Below, one piece after another: positions 301 to 17,098 of a stretch of DNA of 37,029 bases (position 1 is its first letter; each line of letters begins with the position of its first letter). Under the pieces are notes generated by a model. The model was not told the origin of the DNA. It ran no database searches and worked only from the letters and a program-made list of their open reading frames with translations. Position numbers and translations under genes: made by a program. The stretch comes from Pseudomonadota bacterium (GTDB taxonomy: Bacteria > Desulfobacterota > Desulfovibrionia > Desulfovibrionales > Desulfovibrionaceae), in contig JAHIUD010000109.1 in assembly GCA_018817515.1 (NCBI GenBank), forward strand, positions 1 to 37,029, read 5' to 3'.

Positions 301-616
301 ATATGCCTCCGGCGGCCAAGGGGCCTGAGGCCCCTTGGAACCCCCAGTGCGCCGAAAGGGCTGTTTCAGGAGGAACCTGAAACAGCCCTTTCGGCTTGTG
401 TGGGAATCATAGGAGAGCGACTTTCCGAAGGTCTCCGGTTCCGCTCCCAAAAAGGGCCAACCGTGCGCAGGTTTTCGGCGTCTTCGCCGAAAACCTGCGC
501 ACATTGCCAGGGCCAAGCCCAGCCGACGCCTCTGCCCGCGCCACCCCCGGCCCAGGCCTATGGGGAGTCCAGAGGGCCTCAGGCCCTTTGGCGGGGTCTA
601 GGGGCAGCGCCCCTGG
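301..616 (-). repeat. Composite intergenic palindromic element, copy 1 (inverted orientation)
   Basis: It fills the gap between the convergent terminase fragment and M16 peptidase gene. Going rightward it has: end sequence GCCTCCGGCGG (305-315); a 10-bp hairpin with TGA triloop (316-338); the invariant 20-bp hairpin GCCGAAAGGGCTGTTTCAGG with loop AGGAA (351-395); an 18-bp perfect variable-stem hairpin with loop TCTT (463-502) between flanks GGGCCAACC and ATTGCCAGGG; a TCA-triloop hairpin near 571-589; and AGGGGCAGCGCCCCT (600-614). The loop AGGAA is the reverse complement of TTCCT in the other copies, which shows that this copy is inverted. Its reverse complement is close to copy 3 through most of its length. 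No T-tract follows the hairpins, so a role as a two-way terminator is possible but not demonstrated. Confidence 0.85.
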
Positions 617-632
617 CTCTGGCCCCCTGCCC

Positions 633-3600
633 TTACAGCACCTTGGTCAGGGTCAGGTCCAGGCCGCTGGTGGTCAGGCCCTCGCGGCCGCCGGCGATGA
701 CGATGCAGCCCTTGGTGGTGGCGGCTTCTACGGCCTGGCCGAACTCGCGGAAGTCCTGGGGTCCGGCGGCGAGGATGGCGTCGCGTGATTGTTGGCGGTA
801 GTCTTCGTTTTCGCCGGTGAGGTCGCGGGCGAGCGCGGTGAAGCCTTTGGCATCGGGCAGCAGGTAGTGGTCCATGTCGCCCACGGAGCCGATGATGCTT
901 TTTTCCAGTTCCGAGGCGTCGAGGTTCAAGCTGGCGAGGTAGGGCGCGACAGCGGCGAAGGCCTCGACGGTGCGGCCCAGGTTGGGGTCGCGGTAGGAGG
1001 TGAAGGTGAGGTTGCCGCTGGTGCGGGAGTAGGACACGCCTGCGCCGTAGGCTCCGCCCTGCACGCGCACGCGTTCCCAGAGGTAGCCCGCGCGCAGGAA
1101 CTTGGACACCACGGCGGCGGCGGCGCCGGGCGCGTGGCCGAGGGCTTTCACATTGGCGCCGGTGCAGACGTAGTTGACCTGTGCGGGCAGCACGAGCCCT
1201 TCGCGTTCGGGCAGCACGGGCAGGCTGCGCGGGGCGGTGGGCAGCGTGGCGTCGGGGAGGGAGCCAAGGAGGCTGTCCAGGCGTTTGGCGGTATCGGCCA
1301 GGGCCGGGGCATCGGCGGTGAGGTTGGTCACCAGCTTGGAGCGCCTGAGCATGAGGCCGAGCAGGGTGTTCAGGTCGCGCACCACGCCTTCCGGGTCTGT
1401 GGTCATGCGGTTGGCCAGCTCGCGCACGTAGAAAAAGCCGCTGAGGCCCTGCATGGCCTCGCCCATGGCCTGGGGCGCGCCGTAGCGGGCCTTGAGGCGC
1501 GAGGCGGCCAGAGCGTGCCCGGCGGGGATGAGCCGGTGTTCGCGCCGGGCCTTGGTTTCCAGCACGATCTTGCCCAGGCGTTCGATGTCGGAGAAGTCGG
1601 CCTCCAGCAGCACCTCGGCGAGGATGTCGAGCAGGGCCGGGGTGCGTTCGGCGGTGGCCTTGGCACGCAGGAACAGGAGCTGGCAGGGCTCTATGGCGCA
1701 GGAGCCGTCTGGTTTACGCACGGTGGAGATGAAGGACTGCGGCCAAATGCCGCCGGTGGTCATGGCGATCTTGCGCGTCAGGTCCACGAAGGAGGAGCGC
1801 CTGGTGCCCATTTCGAGCAGTGCGCGGCCCAGGATGGGCACCAGCGGGACGAGCTCGTCGGGCACGGCGGAGAGGTCCAGGCCCAGGTCCAGGTAGACGA
1901 TGCCGCTGGTGGGCAGCTCGTGCAGGTGGGCCGAGGCTCCGGCCAGGGTGCTGCGCTCGTGGGGGATGGCCGCGTTCTTGAGCGGCAGGTCGGAGACTTT
2001 GAGGCGCGGGATCTTGGCCAGGTCCTCGGGCGAGTCCGGGGCCTCCTGCAGGGCGTGCAGGGTGTGGGTCTCGGCCACCAGGCGCTCCAGGTCGGCAGGC
2101 GAGAGGGCGGCGCGCACGGCGTCCAGGCGGGCCTTTTCCACGGCTTCGCGGGCGGCTGCCAGGGTCTTGTCAGGCACCAGGATCACCAGGGCGCGGTGCG
2201 GGTTGTGCAGGAACTGGGAGCGGATGAGGTTCTCGAACACGGGCTCGCCAGCGGCCAGCCGGGCCTTGAGGCGGGCCAGCGGCCCCTCGAAGGGCAGCAG
2301 CATGAGCGGGTCGGCGTCGTAGAGCCAGGTGGACAGCGCCTCGAAGAACACGACCAGGCCGCGTGGGTAGCTGCCGGTGTTGTTCTCGCGCAGGTCAAAC
2401 TCCACGCTGTTCAGGGCGGCCTCGATGTCGTCGGCATGCAACCCGGTTTCGGCCAGGTCGCGCAGGGTGGCCAGCACCAGCTCCTCAACCTTGGCGCTGG
2501 CGGCCTCAGCGGCCTCGACGCTGGGCGCGTGCAGGCCCTTCAAGCCCACGGAGAAGGCCAGTTGGCGCAGGTCCGTCTCCAGGCCGCCGCCGGTCAGGTC
2601 CTCGCCCAGGCCGGAGTCGACGAGCGCCTTGCGCAGCGGCGAGGAAGGCAGGCCGATGAGCACGTGCTCCAGCACGGAAAGGGCCAGGTTCAGGTCCGGC
2701 CCGGCGTCTGGATTGTCGGGGTGGGCGGGGTCGGCTGCGGGCTCGGGCAGGCCGAAGTTCACGGTGCACATGGCGCGGGGTCCGGCTTCGCCCGAATCAC
2801 TGGCGTCGTCGCCGCCCTCGGCCAGCTCGTCGCCAGCGTCCTCTGCTTCCACCGCGTAGGGGTGGGTGAAGCGCCTCGGCTCGGCAAAGGGCTTTTGCAG
2901 AGCCACGGCCGAGGTGGCTGCGGCCTCCCGGCCGTCCTCAAACTGCGAGAAGACCTCGTCCAGCAGGGCCAGGCGCTTCTCGGGGTCGTCGTCGCCGGAG
3001 AAGAAGGCATAGGCATTGGACGGGTGGTAGTAGCGCGCATGGAAGTCCATGAACTGCTGGAAGGTCAGGTCCGGGATGCGCTCCGGGTCGCCGCCGGAAT
3101 CCAGGCCGTAGCAGGTGTCTGGGAACAAGGCGCGCTGGGAATACTCGGAGAGCAGGCTCTCGGGCGAGGAGTAGGCGCCCTTCATCTCGTTGAAGACCAC
3201 GCCCTTGTAGGCGAGCGGCGCGTCGACGCTTTCGACGTCGTAGTGCCAGCCCTCCTGCTTCAGGGTGTTCTCGGTCAGGTTCGGGAAGAACACGGCGTCC
3301 AGGTAGACATCAACAAGGTTGTAGAAGTCCTGCACGTTGGCGCTGGCCACGGGGTAGCAGGTCTTGTCCGGGAAGGTCAGGGCATTGAGAAAGGTGTTCA
3401 GCGAGCCCTTGATGAGTTCCACGAACGGTTCCTTCACCGGATACTTCTTGGAGCCGCAGAGCACCGAGTGCTCCATGATGTGCGGCAGGCCCGTGGAGTC
3501 GGCCGGGGGCGTGCGCAGCGCGATGCCGAAGACCTTGTTCTCGTCGGTGCTGATGATGGACAGAAGCCGCCCGCCGGTCTTGGCGTGGCGGTACACGCGG

Positions 3601-3680
3601 GCGGTGGCGGAGAGTTCGGGGAGAACCTGTTCGCGCTCGAGCAGAAAGCCGTGGGTCAATTTTTCGGAAGGCTGGGTCAT
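633..3680 (-). CDS. M16C family zinc peptidase (PreP/insulinase-like), 1015 aa
   Basis: A large zinc metalloprotease related to presequence protease (PreP/falcilysin), which degrades short unstructured peptides inside a closed two-half chamber. The inverted zinc motif is H67-IM-E70-H71, with the third ligand E165 in NEMKG. The substrate-chamber text around LNALTFPDKTCYPVAS (about residues 98-113) is typical of the M16C branch. The length near 1000 aa is that of a single-chain M16C enzyme, with an inactive second half and the M16C-associated region in the middle. A low-complexity acidic/Asp-Ala stretch near residues 270-300 is a likely linker. The ATG at 3680 is preceded by GAGG at good spacing. 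No signal peptide is visible, so it is probably cytoplasmic. It stands alone and converges on the repeat element at its 3' end. Confidence 0.93.
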   Translation of the reverse strand: MTQPSEKLTHGFLLEREQVLPELSATARVYRHAKTGGRLLSIISTDENKVFGIALRTPPADSTGLPHIMEHSVLCGSKKYPVKEPFVELIKGSLNTFLNALTFPDKTCYPVASANVQDFYNLVDVYLDAVFFPNLTENTLKQEGWHYDVESVDAPLAYKGVVFNEMKGAYSSPESLLSEYSQRALFPDTCYGLDSGGDPERIPDLTFQQFMDFHARYYHPSNAYAFFSGDDDPEKRLALLDEVFSQFEDGREAAATSAVALQKPFAEPRRFTHPYAVEAEDAGDELAEGGDDASDSGEAGPRAMCTVNFGLPEPAADPAHPDNPDAGPDLNLALSVLEHVLIGLPSSPLRKALVDSGLGEDLTGGGLETDLRQLAFSVGLKGLHAPSVEAAEAASAKVEELVLATLRDLAETGLHADDIEAALNSVEFDLRENNTGSYPRGLVVFFEALSTWLYDADPLMLLPFEGPLARLKARLAAGEPVFENLIRSQFLHNPHRALVILVPDKTLAAAREAVEKARLDAVRAALSPADLERLVAETHTLHALQEAPDSPEDLAKIPRLKVSDLPLKNAAIPHERSTLAGASAHLHELPTSGIVYLDLGLDLSAVPDELVPLVPILGRALLEMGTRRSSFVDLTRKIAMTTGGIWPQSFISTVRKPDGSCAIEPCQLLFLRAKATAERTPALLDILAEVLLEADFSDIERLGKIVLETKARREHRLIPAGHALAASRLKARYGAPQAMGEAMQGLSGFFYVRELANRMTTDPEGVVRDLNTLLGLMLRRSKLVTNLTADAPALADTAKRLDSLLGSLPDATLPTAPRSLPVLPEREGLVLPAQVNYVCTGANVKALGHAPGAAAAVVSKFLRAGYLWERVRVQGGAYGAGVSYSRTSGNLTFTSYRDPNLGRTVEAFAAVAPYLASLNLDASELEKSIIGSVGDMDHYLLPDAKGFTALARDLTGENEDYRQQSRDAILAAGPQDFREFGQAVEAATTKGCIVIAGGREGLTTSGLDLTLTKVL

Positions 3681-3821
3681 GGCGCCTCATTGGGTGCTTG
3701 AGTGTGGTGGCGCGAAACGCGCGCGTGCCACAAGATATAGCAGGATGGGCCGGGGGGGAAGGGGCAAGGCCCCACTCTACCCCCCAGGGCCACTCGGCCG
3801 GACCCAGCGCGCCCGACCCCG

Positions 3822-3862
3822 CAAAAAAAGCGCCGGACCCCGTACGTCGAGGCCCGGCGCTG
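3822..3862 (-). terminator. Intrinsic terminator of the chemoreceptor gene
   Basis: Read on the minus strand, AGCGCCGGGCC pairs with GGTCCGGCGCT (one mismatch) around an 11-nt loop, and seven T follow immediately (A-run 3823-3829 on the plus strand). It starts 26 nt beyond the chemoreceptor stop codon and separates that gene from the downstream peptidase. Confidence 0.85.
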
Positions 3863-3888
3863 TCTGGCATGTGCTAGCGGGCCGGGGC

Positions 3889-5925
3889 CTAGCCGCGCCC
3901 CTCCTGTTCCAGTTTGGTGATGAGCTGCTTGAGCACCTGCGACTGCTCGGCCAGCTCGCCCACGGCCTTGGCGGCCTCGTTCATGGCCTGCGAGGTGGAG
4001 TTGGAGATGATGTTGACCTGCTCGATGGAGCGGTTGATCTCCTCGCTGGCGGCGGACTGCTCCTCGCTGGCGGTAGCGATGGAGCGCACCTGGTCGGTGG
4101 CGTTGTCCACCAGGTTCACGATCTCGCTCAGCGCGGTGCCGGAGTCCTGGGCCAGGGTGGTGGTGACCTCGATGAGGCGCACGGACTTCTCCACGTTCTC
4201 CACGTTGAGCCGCGTGCTGCGCTGGATGACGCCGATGGCATCGCCCACTTCCTTGGTGGCGCTCATGGTCTTCTCTGCCAGCTTGCGGACCTCGTCGGCC
4301 ACCACGGCGAAGCCGCGTCCGGCGTCACCCGCGCGCGCTGCTTCAATGGCCGCGTTCAAGGCCAAGAGGTTGGTCTGGTCGGCGATGTCGGTGATGACGG
4401 TCATGATGCGACCGATGTCCTCGGCCTGCTTGCCCAGGTTGTCCATGTCGACCTTGAGCTGGTCGGACTGCACCTGCACATCGTTCATGCTGGAGACGAC
4501 CTTGCCCACGATGCCCGCGCCGGTCTGGGCCTTGGCCCGGGCGGAGCCAGCCGTCTCGGCGGCCTGGCCGGCATTCCTGGCCACCTCGACGACGGTGGCG
4601 GTCATCTCGTTCATGGCCGTGGCGGTCTCGCTCACGCGGGCTGCCTGATTCTCCGCACCACGGCTCGATTCCTCGATCTGCGAGGAGAGTTCGGCGGAGG
4701 CCGAGGTCACCACCTCGACAATGCTCTCCAACTGCTGGGCAGCCTGGAGCATGCCCGCGCGCTTGGCCTGCTCGGCTTCGGCCTTGGCAGCCTCGGCCTC
4801 GCCCATGGCCACCTGGGCGCGCTGCGTCTGGAGCTCGGCCTCGGCTGTCTTCTGCTTCGCCGTGCCGATCATTTCGGCCAAGCTGCCGACCATCTTGTGC
4901 AGCGAGTCGTCCAGGCGGCCCAACTCGTCCGTGCGCTTGAGGTCCATCTCGCAATCCAGGTTTCCGCTGGCCACGGCTTCGGAGAACTGCACGCAGCTGT
5001 CCAGCGCCCGCAGCATGTGGTTCAGGATGAGCACGACGGCCACGCATACCAGCACGATGCCCAGCACCCCAAAGAGCAGGCTGGCGTTGCGCACGCTGCT
5101 CGCGGCGTTGGAGATGTCGACGGAGCTGACGACGATGACGGCCAGCCAGCCGGTTTCCTTGTCGCGGGAGTAGATGGCGGTCTTCATGGTGCCGTTGTCG
5201 TTGTAGCCCGTCACGCCGGAATCGCTTGTGACCATGGCCTTGCCCCACTCGGTCTCGGCCAGCTTGAGCTTCAACAGCTTGGTATTGTCCGGGTGGCTGA
5301 ACACGACGCCAGCCTTGCTGGCCATGTAGGCGATGCCGCTCTGGCCAACCTTGATGGGGGCCACCACGTCCTCGGAGAATTTGCCGAGGTCGACCCGGGC
5401 GTAGATGATGCCGATGATCTCGTCGCCGTTTTTGATAGGCGCGGCGGCCATGAACACTGGTTTGTTGGTGACGCGGCTGATGACCGGCTCGGAAACATTA
5501 GCCTCGCCCTGGATGGCCAACTTGAAATAGGCGCGGTCGGCGAAGTTGCCCTTGGACTTTGGATCGTCGCCGAAAATCACCTCGCCCTTGGTGTCGAGCA
5601 CATTGACACCCTGGACGGAGGGGTCGAATTGGGTCAACTCAACAAGAGCCTGGCGGGCCAGAGCAATGTTCTCCGCGCTGGGGGTGGTGATGGCTTGCTT
5701 TATTCTGGGGTTTCGCGACTGCAAGACGACGGCCCCTCGAATGTCGGTCGCAAAGCTGCTCGCGCTGCTTGCAAGGGTCTTTGAAAGCACCTTCGAGGAG
5801 TTGAGCAGCTCAAGCCAAAGCTGATCTGAGGCCTTCTGTGTGGAGAAGTAGCTCGCCAGCGCCATGCAGGCGACCACCACGCCAAGGGTGGGGAACAGTA
5901 GCTTTGCGCGCAGTCCGAATTTCAT
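3889..5925 (-). CDS. Methyl-accepting chemotaxis protein with dCache sensor, 678 aa
   Basis: Membrane chemoreceptor feeding CheA/CheW and so the flagellar motor. Order: short cytoplasmic N-terminus, TM1 (about 10-28), an extracytoplasmic double-Cache domain (about 35-270, with [27 protein letters not shown] and PVFMAAAPI), TM2 (about 280-305, [19 protein letters not shown]), a HAMP segment ([21 protein letters not shown]), and a long coiled-coil signalling domain. The conserved hairpin tip reads [19 protein letters not shown] followed by [17 protein letters not shown]. An upstream in-frame ATG at 6003 exists, but the ATG at 5925 has GGAGG at ideal spacing and starts just before TM1, so it is chosen. 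No CheR/CheB-tethering pentapeptide is seen at the C-terminus (LEQEGRG). Ligand not predictable from the sequence. Confidence 0.95.
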
Positions 5926-6287
5926 AATGCCTCCGAAAGGGATGTGTGGGCGCTTACTTAAATGGGTGAACAATTCCGAATCTAGAGTAATTACGTAACA
6001 CAATCATGAGGCTCAGGCAATAAATTCTTGATGTTTTTTGCTTCCTCAGCAAAATAATTCAAGGCCCGCTGCCGACGGCATGGAGGCCGGATTGCCCCCC
6101 AGCCATGCGGCGGGCCGGGCCGCCCTCCGCGACTTCATGCCCGTTGCCTTGACTCCCCCGTCGCCAGCACCTATCCTTCGTAGATTGAGCAAAGCCAGCG
6201 CCGCCCGTCCGGTCGCCCTTCCCCCCCCAGTGGCGCGGCGGGCGCCAGCGCCTTTGCCCCAACCCCAACAGCAAACGGAGATTCCCC
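5926..6287. other. Divergent intergenic region between chemoreceptor and peroxiredoxin genes
   Basis: These 362 bases separate two divergent genes. The part nearer the chemoreceptor (5950-6060) is AT-richer than its surroundings and contains overlapping small palindromes GTAATTAC (5987-5994) and TTACGTAA (5991-5998), possible regulator sites of unknown identity. A weak 7-bp hairpin (TTTTGCT/AGCAAAA, 6036-6054) is also present. The right part holds the peroxiredoxin promoter. No convincing gene or RNA was found. Confidence 0.5.
6149..6177 (+). promoter_or_regulatory. Probable sigma-70 promoter of the peroxiredoxin gene
   Basis: TTGACT (6149-6154) and TATCCT (6172-6177) are separated by 17 bases, close to the housekeeping consensus. 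They lie about 110 bases before the peroxiredoxin start. Sequence match only. Confidence 0.5.
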
Positions 6288-6932
6288 ATGGGCTGCTGCG
6301 ACACCGAGCACGATCACGACGAAGATCTCATGGAATGCGCCAAGGTCGGACAAAAGATCCGCAACTTCACCCTGGAAGCCTATGACCCCACCGAGGGCGG
6401 CTTCACCGAGGTCGATTCCGAAAAGATCCTGAAGAAGAAGAAATGGCTCATCCTGTTCTTCTACCCGGCGGACTTCACCTTCGTCTGCCCCACCGAGCTG
6501 GCCGACCTGGCCGCCAGCCACGCCAAGCTGAAGAAGCTCGGCGCAGAGGTCGTCAGCGTGTCCACGGACACCCAGTTCGCGCACCTGGCCTGGAAAACCT
6601 CCGAGCGCATGCTCGAAGGGGTCAAGTTCCTCATGGCCGCCGACCCCGCCGGACACGTCTCGCGCTACTTCGACGTCTGGGATCAGGACACCGGGCTTGA
6701 CCTGCGCGGCACCTTCATCATCAACCCGGACGGCGTGCTGGTCTCAAGCGAGGTCAACTTCTACAACGTGGGCCGCAACGCCGACGAACTGGTGCGCAAG
6801 CTGGAGGCCAACGTCTACCTGGCCAAGCACCCGGCCGAAGCCTGCCCCGCCAGGTGGAGCCCCGGCGACAAGACCCTGACCCCCGGCGCAGACATCGTCG
6901 GCAAGGTCTACGAGGCCCTGAACCCCAAGTAG
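6288..6932 (+). CDS. Typical 2-Cys peroxiredoxin (AhpC/Prx1 type), 214 aa
   Basis: Thiol peroxidase that reduces hydrogen peroxide and organic hydroperoxides, important for oxygen tolerance in an anaerobe. The peroxidatic cysteine is C67 in PADFTFVCPTEL. The resolving cysteine is C186 in HPAEACPARW, in the C-terminal position of typical 2-Cys enzymes. The GTFIINPDG strand also fits. The start ATG has GGAG seven bases upstream. The N-terminus (MGCCDTEHDHDED, plus C17) carries an unusual Cys/His/Asp-rich stretch ahead of the thioredoxin fold that could bind metal; this is inference. There is no adjacent ahpF or rubredoxin/rubrerythrin gene, so the reducing partner is unknown. A hairpin-forming sequence follows the stop. 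Confidence 0.94.
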   Translation: MGCCDTEHDHDEDLMECAKVGQKIRNFTLEAYDPTEGGFTEVDSEKILKKKKWLILFFYPADFTFVCPTELADLAASHAKLKKLGAEVVSVSTDTQFAHLAWKTSERMLEGVKFLMAADPAGHVSRYFDVWDQDTGLDLRGTFIINPDGVLVSSEVNFYNVGRNADELVRKLEANVYLAKHPAEACPARWSPGDKTLTPGADIVGKVYEALNPK

Positions 6933-6949
6933 CCCGAACAGACCATCCC

Positions 6950-6993
6950 CCCGATCCCGGAGGCAGGCCACTGGCCCAGCCTTCGGGATCGGG
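6950..6993. terminator. Stem-loop after the peroxiredoxin gene
   Basis: CCCGATCCCG (6950-6959) pairs perfectly with CGGGATCGGG (6984-6993), and the intervening bases can partly pair too. There is no T-tract on either side, so it may be a transcript end or processing hairpin rather than a classical intrinsic terminator. Confidence 0.45.
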
Positions 6994-7029: not shown

Positions 7030-7758
7030 ATGAACAAGGACGCCCTGCGCTACGACAAGTGGTTCACCACTCCCGAGGGCAGCCACGCCCTGGGGGCCGA
7101 GCGCCGCCTGCTCGACTCCGTCGTCGCCCAGTGGCCCCGGCGCAACCAGCGCGTGCTCGAAATCGGCTGCGGCACCGGCCTGTTCCAGCAAATCCTCTAC
7201 GACGACGGCTTCTCCGTGGCGGGCCTGGACAAATCTCCGGCCATGATCGATGAGGCGCGCAAACGCCTGGGCCCAAGCGCAGAACTCTACGTGGGCAACG
7301 GCGAAGCCCTGCCCTTCACCGACAAGGAGTTCGACTTCTGCGTGCTCTGGACCATGCTGGAGTTCTGCGACAACCCCGGCCTCGTCCTGGCCGAGGCCGC
7401 GCGCGTGGCCGCCAAAGGCCTGCTCATCGGCTTCCTCAACCGGCACTCCTGCTACTACCTGGCCCGCGGCTGGCGCTGGCCCTGGCAACCCAGCTCCACC
7501 CTGGCGCGCGCGCACTGGTTCACCTGGCCGGAAATGCGCGCCCTGGCCCTCGTCCACACCGGCTTCAAGCCCGCACTCTCGCGCTCCGTGCTGCCGGGCC
7601 CACCCTTCACCTGGCGCGATGCGCCACCCTGGGGCCTCATCAACCGGCTCATCCTGCCGCCGCAACTGGGCGCCATCAGCGCCATGCGCATCGACCTCGT
7701 GGGCTACCAACCCCTGACCCCCATCTACGCCTGGAAAACAGAACCCGGCATAGGCTGA
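7030..7758 (+). CDS. Class I SAM-dependent methyltransferase, 242 aa
   Basis: Small soluble methyltransferase of the UbiE/Methyltransf_11 type. The SAM-binding glycine motif RVLEIGCGTG is at about residues 41-50, followed by the acidic residue of motif II in VAGLDKSPAMIDEA, and GNGEALPFTDKEFDFCV, the usual motif before the substrate side. The substrate cannot be predicted; the Trp-rich C-terminal half (RGWRWPWQPSS) is not specific. An ATG at 7009 would add seven residues but lacks a ribosome site; ATG 7030 has AAGG upstream and gives the more usual N-terminus. It follows the peroxiredoxin by about 100 bases and a hairpin. The following spacer carries a lone copy of the repeat end GCCTCCGGCGG at 7766. 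Confidence 0.86.
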   Translation: MNKDALRYDKWFTTPEGSHALGAERRLLDSVVAQWPRRNQRVLEIGCGTGLFQQILYDDGFSVAGLDKSPAMIDEARKRLGPSAELYVGNGEALPFTDKEFDFCVLWTMLEFCDNPGLVLAEAARVAAKGLLIGFLNRHSCYYLARGWRWPWQPSSTLARAHWFTWPEMRALALVHTGFKPALSRSVLPGPPFTWRDAPPWGLINRLILPPQLGAISAMRIDLVGYQPLTPIYAWKTEPGIG

Positions 7759-7765
7759 GACGAGA

Positions 7766-7776
7766 GCCTCCGGCGG
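7766..7776. repeat. Solitary end sequence of the composite repeat
   Basis: GCCTCCGGCGG, identical to the ends of the composite intergenic elements, sits 8 bases after the methyltransferase stop, without the rest of the element. It may be a decayed or minimal copy. Confidence 0.5.
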
Positions 7777-7860
7777 CCAGAGACAGAGCCCCTGGCAGTC
7801 TTGATGTTCGCGAAGTGAAGGCGTAGCGTCCGCGCTTTGCACCATCCCAGGAGTACTTCC

Positions 7861-8652: not shown

Positions 8653-8958
8653 GCCTCCGGCGGCCTGGGGCCTGAGGCCCCCGGTCCCCCCCAGTTGGGC
8701 GAGCCGGGGGTGGTGAGGGCAGAGGCGTTGGCTGGGCTGAGCCCTGGCAATGTGTTTGGATCTTCGAGGGGGGACCCTCGAAGATCCGAACACGGTTGGC
8801 CCCTTTTGGGAGAGTTGTTGCAGAAGGCCAAGAGAAAGACGCTCTCCTGTAACTTCCCCAAAGAAAGCCGAAAGGGCTGTTTCAGGTTCCTCCTGAAACA
8901 GCCCTTTTGGCGCGATGAGGGGGTTCGGGGGGCATGATGCCCCCCGACCGCCGGAGGC
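8653..8958 (+). repeat. Composite intergenic palindromic element, copy 2
   Basis: It fills the gap between convergent genes and is the cleanest full-length copy. It starts with GCCTCCGGCGG (8653-8663) and ends with its reverse complement CCGCCGGAGGC (8948-8958). Inside are: a GGGGCC-TGA-GGCCCC hairpin (8667-8681); CCTGGCAAT, then a 19-bp variable stem (8752-8770/8775-8793, one T-G pair, loop GGGA), then GGTTGGCCC; the 20-bp hairpin with loop TTCCT (8867-8911, one T-G pair); and a GGGGGGCA-TGA-TGCCCCCC hairpin (about 8928-8946). Its variable stem (GGATCTTCGAGGG core) shares no sequence with that of copies 1, 3 or 4. Confidence 0.88.
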
Positions 8959-9943: not shown

Positions 9944-10969
9944 GTGCAGTTGGCGCAGGCAGAGGCATTTCGCTACGTGTTCGGGCCGGTGATGTCGGGC
10001 CGCTTGGGCCGCTCGCTCGGGCTGGACCTGCTGGGACGTCGCGTCTGCTCCATGAACTGCGTGTACTGCGAGTCCGGCGCACTGGAGCAGTTGACGCTGG
10101 TGCGCAAGGCTTACGTGCCCGCGCCTGCGCTGCTGGCCGAGCTGGAGCGCTGGGAGGCCGCGCGCATTGCGGCGAACCAGGCCCTGCCTGACGTGGTGAC
10201 CCTGGGCGGCCTGGGCGAGCCCACGCTGAACAGCGACCTTCCCGCCATCATTAAAGGTGTGCGCAGGCTGTTGCCGGGCGTGCCCGTGGCGGTGCTGACC
10301 AATTCGACCCTCATGACCGACCCGGCTGTGCGCGCCGAACTTACGGCGGCGGACATGCTGCTGCCCAGCCTGGACTCCCTGGCGCCGGAGGATTTTGCGC
10401 GCGTGAACCGGGCGCATCCGGGCCTTGACCCCAAGGCCATTGCGGACGGCATCCTGGCTTTTCGGGAAGACAGCCAGGCCAGGCACACCAAGATGTTCCT
10501 GGAGATTCTGCTGGTGGCTGGGGTCAATGACTCCGAGCAGAACCTGGAACTTTTGGCGGCCTTCTGCAACCGTCTGCAACCTGACCGCGTGGACGTGGTG
10601 ACCCTTTCGCGCCCGGGCACGGAGGCTTGCGCCCAGGCCGTGGACACGCAAACCCTGTCGCGCTGGCGGGAGCGCCTGGGGCAAACCGTGGCCGCTCTTA
10701 AGCCCGGCGCAGGCACAAGGCTTGCGGAGCGCGAGAAAAATGGGCAAGAACAGACCAGAGGCATGCAGCCGGAGGAACTCCGCGCACGCCTCCTGGCCTC
10801 CCTGGCGCGCCGACCACAGACGGGCGCGCAGCTGGCGGAGGCCCTGCTCGCAGACCAGGGCGAGGTATCGGCCGTCCTGGTGGAGCTGCTCGGCGCGGGC
10901 CGCATAGCGGTGCGCCAGCAGGACGGGCAGGACTACTACCAGGCCCGGACCGACCAGCCGACGCCTTAA
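9944..10969 (+). CDS. Radical SAM protein with C-terminal winged-helix-like extension, 341 aa
   Basis: Member of the COG0731-like radical SAM group. The [4Fe-4S]-binding CxxxCxxC motif reads CSMNCVYC, preceded by GRSLGLDLLGRRV and followed by VTLGGLGEPTLN, the SAM-contacting GGEP-like motif. The barrel continues to about residue 270. The final 70 residues (PEELRARLLASLARRPQ ... ELLGAGRIAVRQQDGQDYY) look like a winged-helix DNA- or protein-binding module. Substrate unknown; relatives include wyosine-type and other tRNA enzymes, but nothing fixes the reaction here. GTG 9944 is chosen because AGGGGTG lies nine bases upstream; GTG 9902 would add 14 residues without a ribosome site. It precedes the ribonuclease gene on the same strand by 66 bases. 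Confidence 0.85.
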   Translation: MQLAQAEAFRYVFGPVMSGRLGRSLGLDLLGRRVCSMNCVYCESGALEQLTLVRKAYVPAPALLAELERWEAARIAANQALPDVVTLGGLGEPTLNSDLPAIIKGVRRLLPGVPVAVLTNSTLMTDPAVRAELTAADMLLPSLDSLAPEDFARVNRAHPGLDPKAIADGILAFREDSQARHTKMFLEILLVAGVNDSEQNLELLAAFCNRLQPDRVDVVTLSRPGTEACAQAVDTQTLSRWRERLGQTVAALKPGAGTRLAEREKNGQEQTRGMQPEELRARLLASLARRPQTGAQLAEALLADQGEVSAVLVELLGAGRIAVRQQDGQDYYQARTDQPTP

Positions 10970-11035
10970 GGCCCCTCTGCAACGTGTGGATGGCCCGAAT
11001 TTCTTCACAATTTTCTATCTCCCGAGGTTCTTTTC

Positions 11036-13087
11036 ATGAGTGATGCCAACGACACCCAGGCCCCGCCCCAGGCGGAGGGCTCTGGCAGCGCACAAGCCGC
11101 TTCCGACTCCCGCACAGATACCCGCACGGACACCCGGCCCGAGAGCCTGCAGGGCGACGCCTCGCACGGCGACGGGCAGCCCCAGGACGCCAAGCCCAAA
11201 CGCTCGCGCGGCAGACGCGGCGGGCGCGGACGCGGGCGCGGGCGCAGCAAAAGCGCCGAAGGTGCGGCTCCGGGCGATGCCGCCAGCCAGGCCTCCCTTG
11301 ATGGTCTGCCTCCTCACGAGGCCCCGCCCTCTCTGGATGGACAGCCCGCCAACGATATTTCCCCGAACGTTCAAGACAGCCAGCCCGGCACCGAGGCGGC
11401 TGTGGCCACACCCAAGCCCAGGAGCCGCAGTCGCGGCGGGCGCGGCAAGTCTTCCGCCGCCAAGGCTGCGGCCAAAAGCGCTGGTGTGGACTCAAGCACG
11501 GACGCGGGTGGCGATGCTGGCATGGACGGCGTAGAGACCGCCCCGGGTTCATCGGAACGCAAGGAGCAGAAAGGCCGGCGGGAGCCTGCCGCCGCCAAGG
11601 AGCCCAAGGAAGCGGCGGACTCCAAGAAGAAGCGCGCCAAGAAGATGTTCATCGGCGTACTGCCGAACGAACTGGTGGAGGTGGTGCTCACCGAGGACAA
11701 CCTCGTGCAGGAATACTACGTGGAAATGCTGCACCAGGCCAAGACCAAGGGCAACATCTACAAGGGCTACATCCACAACATCGACTCCGCGCTGCAGGCG
11801 GCGTTCATCAACTACGGGGCCGAGCGCAACGGCTTCCTGCAGATCGACGAGGTCCACCCCGAGTACTACCAGGGCTCCTATCCGCTCAAAAAGGGCGCCC
11901 GCTACCCGCTCATCCAGAAGGTGCTGCGCCCCGGCCAGGAGGTCCTGGTCCAGGTGGTCAAAGAGCCCACTGGCAAGAAGGGCGCCTTCGTCACCTGCTA
12001 CCTGTCCCTGCCGGGCCGCTATTTTGTCTACACCCTGGGGCGCGACCAGCAGGGCGTCAGCCGCAAGATCGAGGACGAGAAGGAGCGCGAACGCCTGAAG
12101 TCCTGCATCGACCAGATCAGCCCGCCCGAGGGCGTGGGGCTCATCGTGCGCACCGCGGGCATCGGTCGCGCCAAGACCGAGCTGACGCGCGACTACAAGG
12201 TGCTGCACCGTCTCTGGGGTGAGATCAAGAAGAAGGCCCAGACCGAGAAGGCCCCGGCCCTGGTCTACAAGGAGCTGGACCTGGCCGTGCGCGCCGCGCG
12301 CGACTACCTGACCCCGGAAGTGGCCGAGGTCTGGGTGGACGACCCCGACACCTTTGAGCAGATCCGCGACTACGTGGCCCTGGCCTTCCCCAAGAGCCCG
12401 AACATGGTCAAGCTGCACGCCGACCACGACAAGACCATGTGGGAGCGCTTCGGCCTGACCAAGCAGGTGGAGCAGATCTACTCGCGCGAGGTCACCCTGC
12501 CTTCCGGCGGCCGCCTGGTGTTCGACCACACCGAGGCCCTGACCTCAGTCGACATCAACTCTGGCAAGATCGGAGGCGAGCAGAGCTTTGCGCGCATGGC
12601 CCAGAAGACCAACACAGAGGCCGCCGAGGAAATCGTGCGCCAGCTTAAATTGCGCGACATCGGCGGACAGATCGTCATCGACTTCATCGAGATGAAGGAC
12701 CCCAAGCACATCCGCGATGTGGAGAAGGTCGTGCGCCTGGCCATGAAGAACGACCGCGCGCGCACCGATGTCTCCGGCATCTCGCCCTTCGGCCTCATGG
12801 AGCTGGTGCGCCAGCGCCTGGGCTCCTCGGCCATCAGCGTGTCCACCGAGCCCTGCCCCTGCTGCGGCGGCACGGGCATCCGCAGGAACCTGGAATGGCA
12901 GTCGCTCCAGGCCATGAAGACCATCCACCGCCTGCTGCGCCGCCCCGGCTGCCCCAACCCGCTCCAGGTGCCCCTGGGCCAGGAGCTGGCCATCTACATG
13001 CTGAACAACAAGCGCGAGCTGTTGACCGAGATGGGCGCGCGCCTGGACAACCGCGTGGAGATCGTGGTCAACACCAAGCTGCCGTAG
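11036..13087 (+). CDS. Rne/Rng family ribonuclease with N-terminal disordered RG-rich extension, 683 aa
   Basis: Endoribonuclease of the RNase E/G family, processing rRNA and initiating mRNA decay at single-stranded AU-rich sites. The catalytic part begins near residue 203 (KKMFIGVLPNELVEVVLTE), followed by an S1-type domain with inserted sensor region (about 235-340) and the DNase I-like domain. The two metal-binding acids are D506 (TSVDINSG) and D549 (IVIDFIEM), 43 residues apart as in E. coli RNase E (303/346). The Zn-link is CPCCGGTG, C607-C610, also at the E. coli spacing. Residues 1-203 are low-complexity Ala/Ser/Asp/Lys/Arg with RG-rich blocks at 57-71 and 129-138. E. coli RNase E instead has its scaffold tail at the C-terminus. 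Without the extension, the core has RNase G length. Start ATG 11036 has GAGG eight bases upstream. Confidence 0.95.
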   Translation: MSDANDTQAPPQAEGSGSAQAASDSRTDTRTDTRPESLQGDASHGDGQPQDAKPKRSRGRRGGRGRGRGRSKSAEGAAPGDAASQASLDGLPPHEAPPSLDGQPANDISPNVQDSQPGTEAAVATPKPRSRSRGGRGKSSAAKAAAKSAGVDSSTDAGGDAGMDGVETAPGSSERKEQKGRREPAAAKEPKEAADSKKKRAKKMFIGVLPNELVEVVLTEDNLVQEYYVEMLHQAKTKGNIYKGYIHNIDSALQAAFINYGAERNGFLQIDEVHPEYYQGSYPLKKGARYPLIQKVLRPGQEVLVQVVKEPTGKKGAFVTCYLSLPGRYFVYTLGRDQQGVSRKIEDEKERERLKSCIDQISPPEGVGLIVRTAGIGRAKTELTRDYKVLHRLWGEIKKKAQTEKAPALVYKELDLAVRAARDYLTPEVAEVWVDDPDTFEQIRDYVALAFPKSPNMVKLHADHDKTMWERFGLTKQVEQIYSREVTLPSGGRLVFDHTEALTSVDINSGKIGGEQSFARMAQKTNTEAAEEIVRQLKLRDIGGQIVIDFIEMKDPKHIRDVEKVVRLAMKNDRARTDVSGISPFGLMELVRQRLGSSAISVSTEPCPCCGGTGIRRNLEWQSLQAMKTIHRLLRRPGCPNPLQVPLGQELAIYMLNNKRELLTEMGARLDNRVEIVVNTKLP

Positions 13088-13169
13088 CCCGGCTGCCATA
13101 CTCGGGCGGCAGCGAGAGGCCAACACCGCGCGCCGAAGCACAACCATCCACAACATCACAAGGCAAGCC

Positions 13170-13832
13170 ATGCCCAGCCCAGAACCTCTGCACCCCACCG
13201 CCGCGCCCGGTGAGAACGCCATCCTGCTGCACGCCTGCTGCGGGCCGTGCAGCATCATGTCCGTGCAGCGCCTGCGCGACCTGGGGCTGGCCCCCACGCT
13301 CTTCTTCTACAACCCCAACATCCACCCGCTGTCCGAGTACCTGCGCCGACGCGAGGGCCTGCTGGCCGTGGCCCAGCGCATGGATACGCCCGTCATCTTC
13401 GCCGACGAGGCCACCGACTCCGGCCATCCCGCCGAGTCCGGCCCTGCCGCCGCACACCCCGGCCCCTGGCTCGCGGCCATGGCCGAGCTGGGAGCCGGCA
13501 TGGACGACATGAAACAGCGCTGCCCCAAATGCTACGACCTGCGCTTCGTGGTGGCGGCCAGGGTGGCGCGCAGCCTCGGCTTCGCCAGGTTCACCAGCAC
13601 CCTGCTCTACAGCCGCTATCAGAACCGCAAGGCCATCCTGGCCGCTGGCGAGCGCCACGCCGGGCCGGACCTCGCCTTCCTGCCCGAGGACTTCCGCCCC
13701 GGCCTGCTGGAGGGCGTGCGCCTGTCCAAGGAGTGGGGCATCTACCGCCAGCAGTACTGCGGTTGCCTGCTCAGCGAGTACGAGCGCTACAAGCGCCTGC
13801 TGGAACAGGACAAGCCCGCCGTAAACACCTGA
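13170..13832 (+). CDS. queH: Epoxyqueuosine reductase QueH, 220 aa
   Basis: Iron-sulfur enzyme that performs the last step of queuosine synthesis in tRNA, reducing epoxyqueuosine without cobalamin; it replaces QueG in many anaerobes. The family's cysteine signature is complete: HACCGPC (C23, C24, C27), RCPKCYDLRF (C118, C121) and YRQQYCGC (C197, C199). FFYNPNIHPLSEYLRR after the first motif is also typical. Length is normal, though a Gly/Ala/Pro insertion at about 84-99 looks non-conserved. Start ATG 13170 has AAGG upstream. It lies 82 bases after the ribonuclease gene and may share its transcript. Confidence 0.93.
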   Translation: MPSPEPLHPTAAPGENAILLHACCGPCSIMSVQRLRDLGLAPTLFFYNPNIHPLSEYLRRREGLLAVAQRMDTPVIFADEATDSGHPAESGPAAAHPGPWLAAMAELGAGMDDMKQRCPKCYDLRFVVAARVARSLGFARFTSTLLYSRYQNRKAILAAGERHAGPDLAFLPEDFRPGLLEGVRLSKEWGIYRQQYCGCLLSEYERYKRLLEQDKPAVNT

Positions 13833-14076
13833 GCTCCCCCGCCGCTTCCCCGGACCCAGCACAACAAATTCGAGTTTCCGCACGGCGGGCCAAACCCGGC
13901 ACCTTGCCGACCAGCGCATGCACCAGAGCAAGACCATGCACAAGGTCATGCAATCCCAAAACAAACCGACGTGATTCTGACCGCAAGCTCCCACGGCGTG
14001 CAGCCCTGAAACACCCGGCAGCCCTTGGGCACCAGGCAAATCATGCCCTTGGCACAGCCTTTGCTTATGCGAAGGC
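13833..14076. other. Intergenic region upstream of the BON lipoprotein gene
   Basis: There is no gene in these 244 bases. The right end contains a close match to a sigma-54 promoter. Several GCATG/CATGC motifs recur at 13917-13951 (GCGCATGCACC, CCATGCACAAGG, CATGCAATCC) and could be part of an activator site; that is a guess. Confidence 0.4.
14050..14066 (+). promoter_or_regulatory. Sigma-54 (-24/-12) promoter
   Basis: TGGCACAGCCTTTGCTT matches the consensus TGGCAC-N5-TTGC[AT] with the exact GG-to-GC spacing. The predicted start of transcription is near 14076, which has consequences for the start of the BON gene. Confidence 0.65.
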
Positions 14077-15165
14077 ATGGAAACCACACGCCGCCCCAAC
14101 ACGCTCGCCGCACACAGCCGCGCCCGGTCCTTCACCCGGAACGGCGTGCGCGCCTTGGTGCTCAGCCTGCTGGCCCTCATGCTCTTCGGCGCCGGAGGCT
14201 GCGCCATGCTGCCCTTCGCCCTGTCCACCACGGCCTCCTTGGCCGCGCCCAGAACCGCCTCCCTGGCCTTCAGCGGCGTCAAGAACATCTACCAGACCGC
14301 GCAGCTCGCCGCAGACGAACGCGACATGAACACCATCCTGCGCGACAACATGCTCACCATGAAGGCCAAAAGCTCGCTGCTGACTGAGCAGGCCGCCTCC
14401 GACGTGCAAGTGTACGCCTACAATGGCGACATTTTCGCTGTGGGTGTGGTGGAAAACGAAACCCAGCGCGACCACATCATCAAGACCCTGCAAAGCGTCA
14501 AGGGCGTCGACGAAGTCATGGGCGTGCTGCGCTTGAACGACCTTGAAAATCCCTACGCCGGGCTCAAGGACGACTTCCTCGAAAGTTCCACCCGCATGGC
14601 GCTTAGCCGCTACATTCTGCACAAGAACGCCGGGGTCGAAGTCTCCGCCGTGCAAGGCGAAATCTGCCTCGTTGGTGTCGTCGGCACCCACGCCGAAGCT
14701 CTCGACCTCATCCAGTACGTCGAATCGGTGTCCGGCACCCGCGCCATGTCCCTGCTCGCCATCCGCGACGAATACGCCACCGGAAAACGCGAAAACAACC
14801 ACCGCTACCTGCTCTCCCCCAGACCCGAGCACGCACCACCGCGTGCGCCAGAAGCCGCACGCATCGCCAGCGCCAAGCCGCATAGCGCGCCCGCAACCCA
14901 CGTTGCCACACGCTCACTCATGGCCGAGGCACAGTCCGCTGAGCCCGTCGTCTGGAACAAGGCCCGACTGCGCCTGGGCGCACAACTCAAAACCCTCGCC
15001 AAAAGCCAGAACAACCCCACCGCCAAGGCCGAGCTGCTCACCCTGGCCGGGCAGGTCACCACCGACCGCGACGTGTCCATCGCCGACCGCCTGTCCGTGG
15101 CCGCCGCCCAAGCCACAAACCAGCACGCCCGACTCAAGATCCAGTCCCTGCTCGCCCTGTACTGA
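14077..15165 (+). CDS. BON-domain (OsmY/YraP-like) lipoprotein, up to 362 aa
   Basis: Probable envelope lipoprotein. A hydrophobic signal (RALVLSLLALMLFGAGG) ends at a lipobox-like AGGC, lipidation on C42 in this numbering. Two BON-type modules follow (about 80-150 with VQVYAYNGDIFAVGVVENETQ, and 155-225 with VEVSAVQGEICLVGVVGTH); BON domains are linked to membrane binding and envelope stability. A Pro/Ala/His-rich linker (about 240-285) and an Ala/Leu-rich helical C-terminus follow. ATG 14077 is the longest start, but the sigma-54 motif predicts transcription from about 14076, making that start leaderless. GTG 14146 would give an 18-residue lipoprotein signal with a 70-base leader and is a serious alternative. 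The gene runs into composite element copy 3. Confidence 0.85.
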   Translation: METTRRPNTLAAHSRARSFTRNGVRALVLSLLALMLFGAGGCAMLPFALSTTASLAAPRTASLAFSGVKNIYQTAQLAADERDMNTILRDNMLTMKAKSSLLTEQAASDVQVYAYNGDIFAVGVVENETQRDHIIKTLQSVKGVDEVMGVLRLNDLENPYAGLKDDFLESSTRMALSRYILHKNAGVEVSAVQGEICLVGVVGTHAEALDLIQYVESVSGTRAMSLLAIRDEYATGKRENNHRYLLSPRPEHAPPRAPEAARIASAKPHSAPATHVATRSLMAEAQSAEPVVWNKARLRLGAQLKTLAKSQNNPTAKAELLTLAGQVTTDRDVSIADRLSVAAAQATNQHARLKIQSLLALY

Positions 15166-15168
15166 GCG

Positions 15169-15522
15169 CAGGGGCGCTGCCCCTGGACCCCGCCAAAGGG
15201 CCTGAGGCCCTCTGGACTCCCCATAGGCCTGGGCCGGGGGTGGGGCTGGCAGAGGCGTCAGCTGGGCTTGGCCCTGGCAATGTGCGCAGGTTTTCGGCGA
15301 GGACGCCGAAATACCTGCGCACGGTTGGCCCCTTTGGGGAGAGTTGTTGCCTGGCCATGCGCGGTTGGCCCTATTTTTGGAGCGGTACCTAAAGAGCTCT
15401 CTCGTGGTTTACCCTGACCCACACAAGCCGAAAGGGCTGTTTCAGGTTCCTCCTGAAACAGCCCTTTCGGCGCAATGGGGGGGCCTGGGGGGCCTCAGGC
15501 CCCACAGCCGCCGGAGGCATAT
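15169..15522 (+). repeat. Composite intergenic palindromic element, copy 3 (mosaic)
   Basis: It fills the gap between two genes in tandem, unlike the others. It starts with AGGGGCGCTGCCCCT (15170-15184), then AGGGCC-TGA-GGCCCT; CCTGGCAAT; a variable stem of the same type as copy 1 (15282-15299/15304-15322) with one extra T on the right arm; then GGTTGGCCC. The right flank is then partly repeated: GCGGTTGGCCCTATTTTTGG follows at 15360-15379. After that come the 20-bp hairpin with loop TTCCT (15427-15471), a GGGGCC-TCA-GGCCCC hairpin and CCGCCGGAGGCATAT (15508-15522). It is nearly the reverse complement of copy 1 over most of its length. Confidence 0.87.
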
Positions 15523-15578
15523 CGCTTTTGGACGCAGGGCATTGCCTTTGGGTGGGTGCTGGGGCTACAGGGGACATT

Positions 15579-16781
15579 ATGAACGTCGTCGTGCTGCACC
15601 GAAACTTCCCTGGCCAGTTCCGGCACATTGTGCGGCACCTGGTGCAGGGCGGGCACCGCCTGGTGGGTGTGGGCAACATGCAGGCCCCGGGCCTGGCTGG
15701 CGTCGACCTGGTGCGCTACGATTCAAAGAAGCTCAAGATCGGCGGGCACCGCTTTCTGGCTACGGTTTCAAGCGGCGTGGCCCATGGCGAGGTGGTGGCG
15801 CACGCGCTGACGCAGCTGCGCGGCAGGGGCTTTGTGCCGGACGTGGTGCTGGCGCATCCCGGCTGGGGCGAGGCCTTGTACGTCAAGGACGTGTTCCCGG
15901 ACGTGCGCCTGGTGTCGCTGTTCGAGTTCTTCTACCATGCCCAGGGCGTGGACGTTGGCTTTGAGCCGGGCACGGAGGCTGATTTCGATCAGCGCGCCAA
16001 CCTGCGCTGCCGCAACATGCTGCACCTGACCAATCTGGAGCTGTGCGACGCAGCGGTCTCGCCCACGGCCTGGCAGCGTTCGGTGCACCCGGCAACGTAC
16101 CACCACAAGATACAGGTGGCGCACGAGGGCGTGGACACCACGCTCATGGCCCCGGACAAGGCCGCGCGCTTCGCCCTGCCGGATGGCCGCGAGCTTGCGC
16201 CAGGCGACCCGGTCATCACCTTCGTGGCCCGCAACCTGGAGCCCTACCGGGGCTTCCACAGGCTCATGCGCACCCTGCCGGACATCCAGCGCCGCTGCCC
16301 CGAGGCCCTCACGGTCATCGTCGGCGGAGACTCGGTAAGCTACGGCCGCGCGCCCAAAGACGCCGCCAACTGGCGCGAAAAGCTCCTGGCCGAGGTTGGG
16401 CCGCAGCTCGACCTCACGCGCGTGGTCTTCACCGGACAGATCCCATACCTCACCTACCGCTCGCTCCTGCAGGTCTCCGCCGCGCACGTCTACCTCACCT
16501 ACCCCTTCGTGCTGTCCTGGTCCATGCTCGAGGCCATGAGCTGCGGCTGCCTGGTGCTGGGCTCGGCCACACCGCCCGTGCTGGAAGTCCTGCGCCACAA
16601 CGAAAACGGCTTGACTTTCGACTTCTTCGACAACGATGGCCTCGCCAATCTGGTTGAAGCGGCCCTGGCGCACCCCGAGAACGTCACCCACCTGCGCACG
16701 CAGGCCCGGGCCGACATCGTGGCCAACTACGACATCCAACACGGCATCCAACACTACATGAAGCTGCTGCAAGGCTCGTAA
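15579..16781 (+). CDS. Glycosyltransferase family 4 protein, 400 aa
   Basis: GT-B fold, retaining glycosyltransferase. The N-terminal half begins NVVVLHRNFPGQFRHI, as in the 'glycosyl transferase family 4 group' N-terminal domain. The acceptor side includes HPGWGEALYVKDVFPDVRLVSLFEFFYH. The C-terminal GT4 domain has PVITFVARNLEPYRGFHRLM and the nucleotide-sugar site LSWSMLEAMSCGCLVLGSATPPVLEV (E-x7-E type). Likely role: adding a sugar to a surface polysaccharide or lipid, substrate unknown. Start ATG 15579 has AGGGG six bases upstream; a TTG at 15528 would place the N-terminus inside the repeat region. The gene stands between two composite elements (copies 3 and 4), with no other sugar genes nearby. 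Confidence 0.9.
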   Translation: MNVVVLHRNFPGQFRHIVRHLVQGGHRLVGVGNMQAPGLAGVDLVRYDSKKLKIGGHRFLATVSSGVAHGEVVAHALTQLRGRGFVPDVVLAHPGWGEALYVKDVFPDVRLVSLFEFFYHAQGVDVGFEPGTEADFDQRANLRCRNMLHLTNLELCDAAVSPTAWQRSVHPATYHHKIQVAHEGVDTTLMAPDKAARFALPDGRELAPGDPVITFVARNLEPYRGFHRLMRTLPDIQRRCPEALTVIVGGDSVSYGRAPKDAANWREKLLAEVGPQLDLTRVVFTGQIPYLTYRSLLQVSAAHVYLTYPFVLSWSMLEAMSCGCLVLGSATPPVLEVLRHNENGLTFDFFDNDGLANLVEAALAHPENVTHLRTQARADIVANYDIQHGIQHYMKLLQGS

Positions 16782-16803
16782 GGCAGCGCCAAAGGACTGG
16801 GAT

Positions 16804-17098
16804 GCCTCCGGCGGCCTGGGGCCTGAGGCCCCCGGACCCCCCATTGGTCTGTGCCGGGGGTGGCGAGGGCAGATGCGTTGGCTGATCTTGGCCCTGGCAA
16901 TGTGCGCGATATTTTGAGCGCAGACGCTCAAAATATCGCGCACGGTTGGCCCTTTTTAGGAGCGAAACCGAAAGACCTCTCTCGTGGTTTCCCCTGACTC
17001 ACACAAGCCGAAAGGGCTGTTTCAGGTTCCTCCTGAAACAGCCCTTTCGGCGCAATGAGGGGGTTCGGGGGGCATCATGCCCCCCGACCGCCGGAGGC
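16804..17098 (+). repeat. Composite intergenic palindromic element, copy 4
   Basis: It lies between the convergent glycosyltransferase and HD-protein genes. GCCTCCGGCGG (16804-16814) opens it and CCGCCGGAGGC (17088-17098) closes it. Inside are a GGGGCC-TGA-GGCCCC hairpin; CCTGGCAAT; a perfect 19-bp variable stem (16902-16920/16925-16943, loop CAGA, core GCGCGATATTTTGAGCG); GGTTGGCCC; the 20-bp hairpin with loop TTCCT (17007-17051); and GGGGGGCA-TCA-TGCCCCCC. It shares its right-hand end with copy 2 and its central spacer with copy 3. Confidence 0.88.

What the first reader, a model, noticed from the sequence alone, without database searches (positions are those of the whole stretch)
301..17098. 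A multi-copy composite palindromic element in the gaps between genes
Four gaps (301-616, 8653-8958, 15169-15522, 16804-17098) contain the same ordered set of parts. These are end sequence GCCTCCGGCGG or its inverse, a triloop hairpin, CCTGGCAAT, a variable stem, GGTTGGCCC, a spacer, the 20-bp hairpin GCCGAAAGGGCTGTTTCAGG with loop TTCCT, a second triloop hairpin, and the inverted end. Copies 2 and 4 have the full inverted ends. Three of four lie between convergent genes. No transposase is nearby, and copy number within 17 kb implies many in the genome. It may be a MITE/REP-like parasite, a two-way transcript end, or a structured RNA.
Basis: seen in the sequence. Interest (0 to 1): 0.75.

Follow-up and report, generated by a model that had tools for sequence, protein, structure and literature searches.

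The report
Modular repeat doubling as gene-end terminator
A roughly 300-base repeat sits just after stop codons, mostly between genes that face each other, and looks like two back-to-back transcription stop signals built from swappable hairpin parts; nothing here shows that it jumps or that it makes an RNA of its own.

Summary
The four window copies belong to a family of at least 55 sites in this genome, which belongs to a Humidesulfovibrio-type genus. By an exact-arm pattern, hairpin B occurs in 7 of 15 genomes of the genus and in 0 of 273 others of the family. There is no Rfam match. No Y1/RAYT transposase was found in the own genome or in five of six element-bearing relatives, the sixth not tested. 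No target-site duplication was seen.

The anatomy is polar. Hairpin A has a T-rich tract on its plus side and hairpin B mainly on its minus side, so the tracts face each other. A tends to face the gene ending on its side, and B the gene ending on the other side. The inverted ends are a REP-like module found a few bases after stop codons, where elsewhere it precedes other hairpins. In the copy 4 gap, four element-free sister species carry an ordinary U-tract terminator.

Best reading: a BIME/REP-like mosaic serving as tail-to-tail gene-end terminators. Stems change by paired substitutions without G-U bias, hinting at template-switch repair. There are no expression data, and mobility is not shown.

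The parts
301..616 (-). Copy 1, whole composite element; A side at the window's right end
305..348 (+). Copy 1 B-side end module, in sense after the stop of gene 3-290
351..395 (-). Copy 1 hairpin B
454..511 (-). Copy 1 hairpin A, followed on the minus strand by a T run
551..616 (-). Copy 1 A-side end module, CCAGGGGC variant, after the stop of gene 633-3680
8653..8958 (+). Copy 2, whole element with both GCCTCCGGCGG ends
8743..8802 (+). Copy 2 hairpin A followed by CTTTT
8867..8911 (+). Copy 2 hairpin B
15169..15522 (+). Copy 3, whole element, between codirectional genes; variant left end
15273..15331 (+). Copy 3 hairpin A
15359..15371 (+). Copy 3 extra partial repeat GCGCGGTTGGCCC
15427..15471 (+). 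Copy 3 hairpin B
16804..17098 (+). Copy 4, whole element with both GCCTCCGGCGG ends
16804..16847 (+). Copy 4 A-side end module, after the stop of gene 15528-16781
16893..16952 (+). Copy 4 hairpin A; window 16886-16960 folds at -41.0 kcal/mol (z -6.29), with the flanking GGCC and GGTTGGCC closing the stem one base before TTTTT
17007..17051 (+). Copy 4 hairpin B; on the minus strand -40.1 kcal/mol (z -8.88), followed there by TTGTGTGAG
17054..17098 (-). Copy 4 B-side end module, in sense after the stop of the minus-strand gene at 17106
7766..7777 (+). Lone end sequence 8 nt after the stop codon of gene 7030-7758

Best explanation
Each copy is a mosaic intergenic repeat that works as a tail-to-tail pair of gene-end signals. 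After its stop codon, each neighbouring gene meets the same REP-like end module (GCCTCCGGCGGCC plus a triloop hairpin), and then a strong terminator-type hairpin with a T-rich tract: A for the left gene, B for the right gene. The two tracts face each other across the spacer, so each transcript would stop, or be trimmed back to a protected hairpin, before entering the other gene. Shown here: the anatomy, the polarity, the placement after stop codons, the interchangeable parts, and an ordinary terminator in the same slot in some element-free species. Inferred: actual termination or 3'-end protection, and spread by copying or gene conversion from older REP-like modules. Stem pairing is kept by paired changes, plausibly helped by replication template switching.
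For: Gap types in the own genome: gaps holding an element are 32 convergent, 18 codirectional, 1 divergent; other gaps of 20 bp or more in the same regions are 6, 82 and 25. Orientation, recounted with a more lenient A motif: 24 A+B elements with both neighbours called are 19 convergent, 2 with only the A-side gene running in, 2 with only the B-side gene, 1 with neither; 20 elements without a stemmed A have the B-side gene running in in 19 and the other gene in 10. In codirectional gaps, elements without a stemmed A have B facing the gene end in 10 of 11; elements with A have A facing it in 5 of 7, of which 2 of 4 A+B and 3 of 3 A-only. With B oriented by its flanks instead of its loop, B faces a gene end in 35 of 37 (11 of 49 B sites could not be oriented). 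Relatives, by the stricter motif: 38 of 47 B-only and 18 of 19 A-side. T content of the first 9 nt: A 3.97 plus vs 0.07 minus (n=29); B 4.58 minus vs 2.06 plus (n=48). In copy 4 the conserved flanks of A pair and bring the stem base to one base before TTTTT. End sequence in 34 regions picked away from A/B: 38 sites, 20 in sense after a stop codon, 14 called inside an ORF, 4 other. Gap of copy 4: G152, G155, G157 and G161 have a hairpin with a run of A before it, that is a U-tract terminator for the right-hand gene, where G000, G156 and G163 have the element; only G161 also has TTTT on the plus side. Other orthologous gene ends in G152 and G159: hairpin plus T tract in 17 of 40 sense vs 6 of 40 antisense (p 0.013). 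Pairing: 97.4% (B) and 94.2% (A) of cells paired, 6 and 10 pairs with changes on both sides, 0 of 500 shuffles reaching the covariation score.
Against: No transcript data. The T tracts are short and interrupted (TTTCTTT, TTGTGTG), and 5 of 29 A copies are followed by CCCCTTCC or CCCCCTTCC instead of a T run. A full element lies in a divergent gap, and 2 of 4 codirectional A+B elements have the gene end on the B side, so A is not always used. My first count (A facing in 5 of 5, Fisher p 0.0025) used an A motif that missed two of these and is withdrawn. If RNA pairing on one strand were selected, G-U should outnumber A-C on that strand; they are equal (B 17 vs 16, A 6 vs 6). G159 alone shows little excess of ordinary terminators over its antisense control (6 vs 4 of 14), and 15 of 26 orthologous ends in G152 and 8 of 14 in G159 had none by my finder; some hits lie far downstream, up to 283 nt. 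Copy 3 and a few others are complete in codirectional or divergent gaps, so the second half is not always needed by a gene.
Confidence: 0.6

Rival explanations
1. A selfish REPIN/MITE-like element: two inverted REP-like modules around a hairpin-forming spacer, moved in trans by a transposase and tolerated best just after stop codons; likeness to terminators is incidental.
For: High copy number with identical B cores at many loci (20 of 48); inverted ends; contig ends at copies; complete copies in codirectional gaps; about half of gene ends differ between related species (G156 keeps A or B at 21 of 39). REPs elsewhere also sit next to gene ends and between convergent genes (PMC3733652, passages), and REPINs show compensatory changes (PMC3116915, passages).
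Against: No Y1_Tnp in the own genome (95% complete) nor in 5 of 6 element-bearing relatives, G160 not tested (control rings in 5 of 14 genomes including E. coli); no direct repeat of 3 bp or more at 23 own end pairs, several of which share an end; no precise occupied/empty pair seen; B keeps a fixed polarity toward genes and its T tract, which random insertion would not give. Other transposase families were not searched.
Confidence: 0.25
2. A REP-like 3' barrier: the modules and hairpins protect mRNA ends from 3'-5' exonucleases or mark processing sites, with real termination elsewhere (for example Rho).
For: End module a few nt after stop codons; very stable hairpins; weak T tracts.
Against: Polarity of the T tracts, and U-tract terminators in the orthologous copy 4 slot.
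Confidence: 0.1
3. A structured non-coding RNA or a DNA-level site (gyrase or nucleoid-protein binding, cruciform).
For: No G-U bias fits DNA-level or two-strand constraint; conserved blocks around A.
Against: No Rfam match; hairpins are swapped for unrelated ones in the same slot; the gene-end bias is not required of a DNA site.
Confidence: 0.05

Closest known systems
BIME / REP (palindromic unit) mosaics of enterobacteria and REPINs of Pseudomonas
   Same: Many-copy intergenic palindromes, mosaic of REP-like modules and other motifs, at gene 3' ends and between convergent genes, inverted doublets with hairpin spacer
   Different: No Y1/RAYT transposase found in the own genome; GTAG/CGTC tags not looked for; the core has two large hairpins with T tracts facing each other; about 300 bp long
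Rho-independent (bidirectional) transcription terminators, including repeats co-opted as terminators (paired uptake sequences in Neisseria, PMC1852404, passages)
   Same: Hairpin plus T tract after stop codons, enriched in tail-to-tail gaps; a repeated DNA word forms the hairpin
   Different: Two separate one-way hairpins tail to tail inside one repeat unit, preceded by a REP-like module; an uptake function was not tested
MITEs
   Same: Short, many copies, inverted ends, no ORF of its own noticed
   Different: No target-site duplication and no matching transposase found

Membership tests
REP/BIME/REPIN | High-copy extragenic palindrome, often mosaic | tested here: met
REP/BIME/REPIN | Cognate RAYT (Y1_Tnp) transposase in the genome | tested here: not met
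   0 matches in G000 and in G153, G156, G158, G163, G165; own assembly 95% complete; G160 not tested
REP/BIME/REPIN | GTAG or CGTC tag at one end of the palindrome | not tested
   not searched for
Intrinsic terminator | GC-rich hairpin followed by T tract in the direction of transcription | tested here: met
   my finder hits 31 of 41 own gene ends and 27 of 39 in G156, not always at A or B; tracts are short
Intrinsic terminator | Transcript 3' ends at the tract | not testable with these tools
   no RNA data held
MITE | Terminal inverted repeats | tested here: met
   23 own and 26 relative end pairs, nested ends counted
MITE | Target-site duplication | tested here: not met
   none of 3 bp or more in own, one of 3 bp in relatives; shuffled mean 0.36 and 0.92 for 3 bp
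Known RNA family (Rfam 15) | Score at or above gathering cut-off | tested here: not met
   whole window; copy 4, relaxed; 8 weak matches, all far below cut-off

The most novel reading that the evidence does not exclude
In one branch of a bacterial genus, a family of self-perfecting palindromes has taken over many gene-end terminator slots: modules are swapped between sites, and each stem is kept perfectly paired by replication template switching between its arms rather than by slow compensatory mutation through G-U. Signs: G-U and A-C deviations are equal; in A, cells changed on both sides outnumber one-side changes 71 to 2, with 25 unpaired cells (some from misaligned rows); some loops are inverted (1 of 38 own and 5 of 69 relative B loops; one more own loop judged by its hairpin A; the G156 ortholog of copy 4 has TCTG where copy 4 has CAGA).
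Probability: 0.25. Interest if true: 0.7.

Novelty: new variant of a known kind. Interest (0 to 1): 0.45.

Why it matters
It offers a case in which a repeat family without a detected RAYT transposase appears to supply gene ends across a genome and to turn over while keeping polarity. That makes two questions testable: how repeats become terminators, and how long perfect hairpins are kept paired in DNA that is copied but not visibly transposed.

Tried and rejected
Rfam at gathering and at relaxed threshold: nothing real. Y1 transposase: absent in own-genus members tested; three of four genomes of a second genus that carries the end module have Y1 matches, whose link to the module was not examined. 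Target duplications: none. B's orientation by its loop was checked against flanks, because loops can be inverted: 37 of 38 oriented own sites agreed. A first count of shared positions (15 of 55 own sites with B in the same gap of a relative) is biased, since most of those relative loci were chosen for holding B; the flank query replaces it. The A motif missed degenerate A copies; one search recounts with a lenient motif, which in turn calls a few stemless matches that look like chance (C14, C88, C109:37821). The counts for relatives still use the strict motif. The gene caller is a simple dicodon script and its starts are rough. Six of 79 loci were dropped by record title as chance hits. The gap counts come from regions chosen for holding elements, so their Fisher odds ratio is inflated. 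A resemblance of A to integron attC sites crossed my mind and was not tested. No covariance model was built.

Full report
Observation. In the own genome (3,612,504 bases, 114 contigs; the window is contig 56) the 20-mer arm of hairpin B has 92 matches with up to 2 mismatches and the reversed control none; hairpin A has 22 exact matches, control none. In the regions fetched around these, 48 B hairpins and 29 A hairpins (strict motif) lie at 55 sites; further A copies turned up later in L300, L320 and L322, so 55 is a lower bound. Rfam has nothing at gathering, and for copy 4 with a relaxed threshold only weak hairpin-like matches far below cut-off.

Organism. Related records carry titles such as Humidesulfovibrio sp. 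Ess09-03, Desulfovibrionales bacterium GWA2_65_9 and Deltaproteobacteria bacterium HGW-Deltaproteobacteria-8. Contig lengths tie G156 and G163 to two of these (374331 and 19251 bases).

Distribution. Hairpin B (exact arms of 10, loop 3-8): 7 of 288 family genomes, all in the own genus of 15. Hairpin A with a real stem, by reading the list: G000, G153, G156, G163 and G165 of 253 genomes searched. I count about 65 other matches outside the genus, none with an evident stem, against 21 for the reversed control, so the pattern alone is not specific. The full end module is wider: 13 of 288 genomes, 6 in the own genus and 7 of 14 in a second, unnamed genus, with up to 72 copies. So the ends are older or more mobile than the core.

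Polarity. A is followed by T on plus and hardly at all on minus; B mainly on minus. The genes fit. With a lenient A motif, 24 A+B elements split into 19 convergent, 2 with only the A-side gene running in, 2 with only the B-side gene and 1 with neither; 20 elements without a stemmed A have the B-side gene running in in 19 and the other in 10. A stricter motif gave 17 of 20 and 22 of 24. In relatives, by the strict motif, the figures are 16 of 19 convergent and 38 of 47, with 18 of 84 B sites undetermined; orthologous sites are not independent. Orienting B by flanks instead of its loop gives 35 of 37. In codirectional gaps B faces the gene end in 10 of 11 elements without a stemmed A, and A faces it in 5 of 7 with A. 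The gap counts (32 convergent, 18 codirectional, 1 divergent, against 6, 82, 25) come from regions chosen because they hold elements, so the odds ratio overstates, but convergent against divergent is still lopsided.

Fold. In copy 4 the conserved words around hairpin A pair with each other, through some G-U pairs and two small bulges, so that the stem closes one base before TTTTT; B folds as a perfect 20-bp stem with TTGTGTGAG behind it on minus. This could explain why CCTGGCAAT and GGTTGGCCC are conserved; it was looked at in copy 4 only.

Modules. Of 38 end sequences in 34 regions that I picked as away from A/B (from 95 matches), 20 lie in sense behind a stop codon, 19 of them within 47 nt and one at 404; 14 were called inside an ORF, of which at least three (L311:2394, L319:1525, L322:515) look like element sites misjudged by my caller; 4 have an upstream gene called on the other strand. 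The same module is followed by other variable hairpins there: CATTTGG-stem-CAAATG, GCGAA-stem-TTCGC, and others. In G156 the slot of B in the copy 3 gap holds an unrelated hairpin, and orthologous ends in L230, L225 and L214 hold B-like frames with another apex, as does L246, which my motif counted as B.

Orthologous slots. In the copy 4 gap, G000, G156 and G163 have the element, G153 has B plus the right module only, and G165 a different hairpin. G152, G155, G157 and G161 have a GC-rich hairpin preceded by 6-8 A, a U-tract terminator for the right-hand gene; on the plus side only G161 has TTTT. A query of 43 own gene ends gave 39 orthologous ends in G156, 26 in G152 and 19 in G159 (14 fetched). 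A or B within 320 nt: 21 of 39, 0 of 26, 0 of 14. Hairpin plus T tract in sense: 11 of 26 in G152 (antisense 2, shuffled 2) and 6 of 14 in G159 (antisense 4, shuffled 0); in G156 27 of 39 (antisense 18, shuffled 4).

Stem evolution. On the own-genome alignments, 97.4% of B cells and 94.2% of A cells pair, with 6 and 10 pairs changed on both sides; sliding the partner drops pairing to at most 53% and 59%. One A measure, further pair types, does not exceed its shuffles (486 of 500 as high). Three A rows are misaligned by one column and lower the A figure. Over all sequences held, deviations are G-T 17, A-C 16, other 20 among 960 B cells (48 distinct cores), and 6, 6, 7 among 432 A cells (54 distinct stems). 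Template switching is reported to create and keep RNA hairpins (PMC8794818, search listing with start of abstract), and compensatory change in terminators is known in Bacillus cereus (PMC5381666, passages). The template-switch reading is an inference.

Known kinds. Desulfovibrio desulfuricans is named among bacteria outside the Firmicutes that appear to use intrinsic termination widely (PMC1852404, passages). REPs near gene ends and between convergent genes are known (PMC3733652, passages; the word Desulfovibrio does not occur in its main text). Searches for Desulfovibrio with repetitive extragenic palindromic, Humidesulfovibrio, Desulfovibrio with intrinsic terminator and Solidesulfovibrio with repeat (8 of 15 listed) showed no paper that by title or abstract start treats this element. 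The role of BIMEs in transcription attenuation in E. coli is recalled, from no call.

Verdict. A real, high-copy mosaic repeat, apparently undescribed, of a known general kind (REP/BIME-like), most likely working as a tail-to-tail pair of gene-end terminators. Termination itself, mobility and template switching are untested.

Noticed in passing
window 7758-7777: A lone end sequence GCCTCCGGCGGCC 8 nt after a stop codon, with no A or B seen behind it.
   Followed up: partly
window 29281-29500: Further REP-like triloop modules in a codirectional gap without hairpins A or B.
   Followed up: no
L038 (own C50, near 36050) and L060 (own C85, near 17840): The same short insert (CCCATCTATGCTGTCGACAGCC...) sits inside the left end module of two copies.
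   Followed up: no
L053, L061 and L047 (own contigs C9, C89, C91): A shared GCGGCAGCCGTTAGG sequence interrupts the right end module; two of the contigs end there, so it may be a further repeat.
   Followed up: no
before hairpin A in the window copies (for example window 16849-16890): A conserved G-rich block between the end module and hairpin A whose role is unexplained.
   Followed up: no
L057 2355-2765, L038 16109-16517, G156 gap of copy 4 (L192): The left end sequence is repeated several times in tandem, mostly at 23-25 base spacing.
   Followed up: no
window 15507-15528: The inverted end CCGCCGGAGGC contains GGAGG shortly before the start of the next codirectional gene, so it could act as a ribosome site there.
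   Followed up: no
L194 3876-4936 (G153): The orthologous gap of copy 4 lacks the left half of the element and has about 900 bases of other sequence, with a possible small gene.
   Followed up: no
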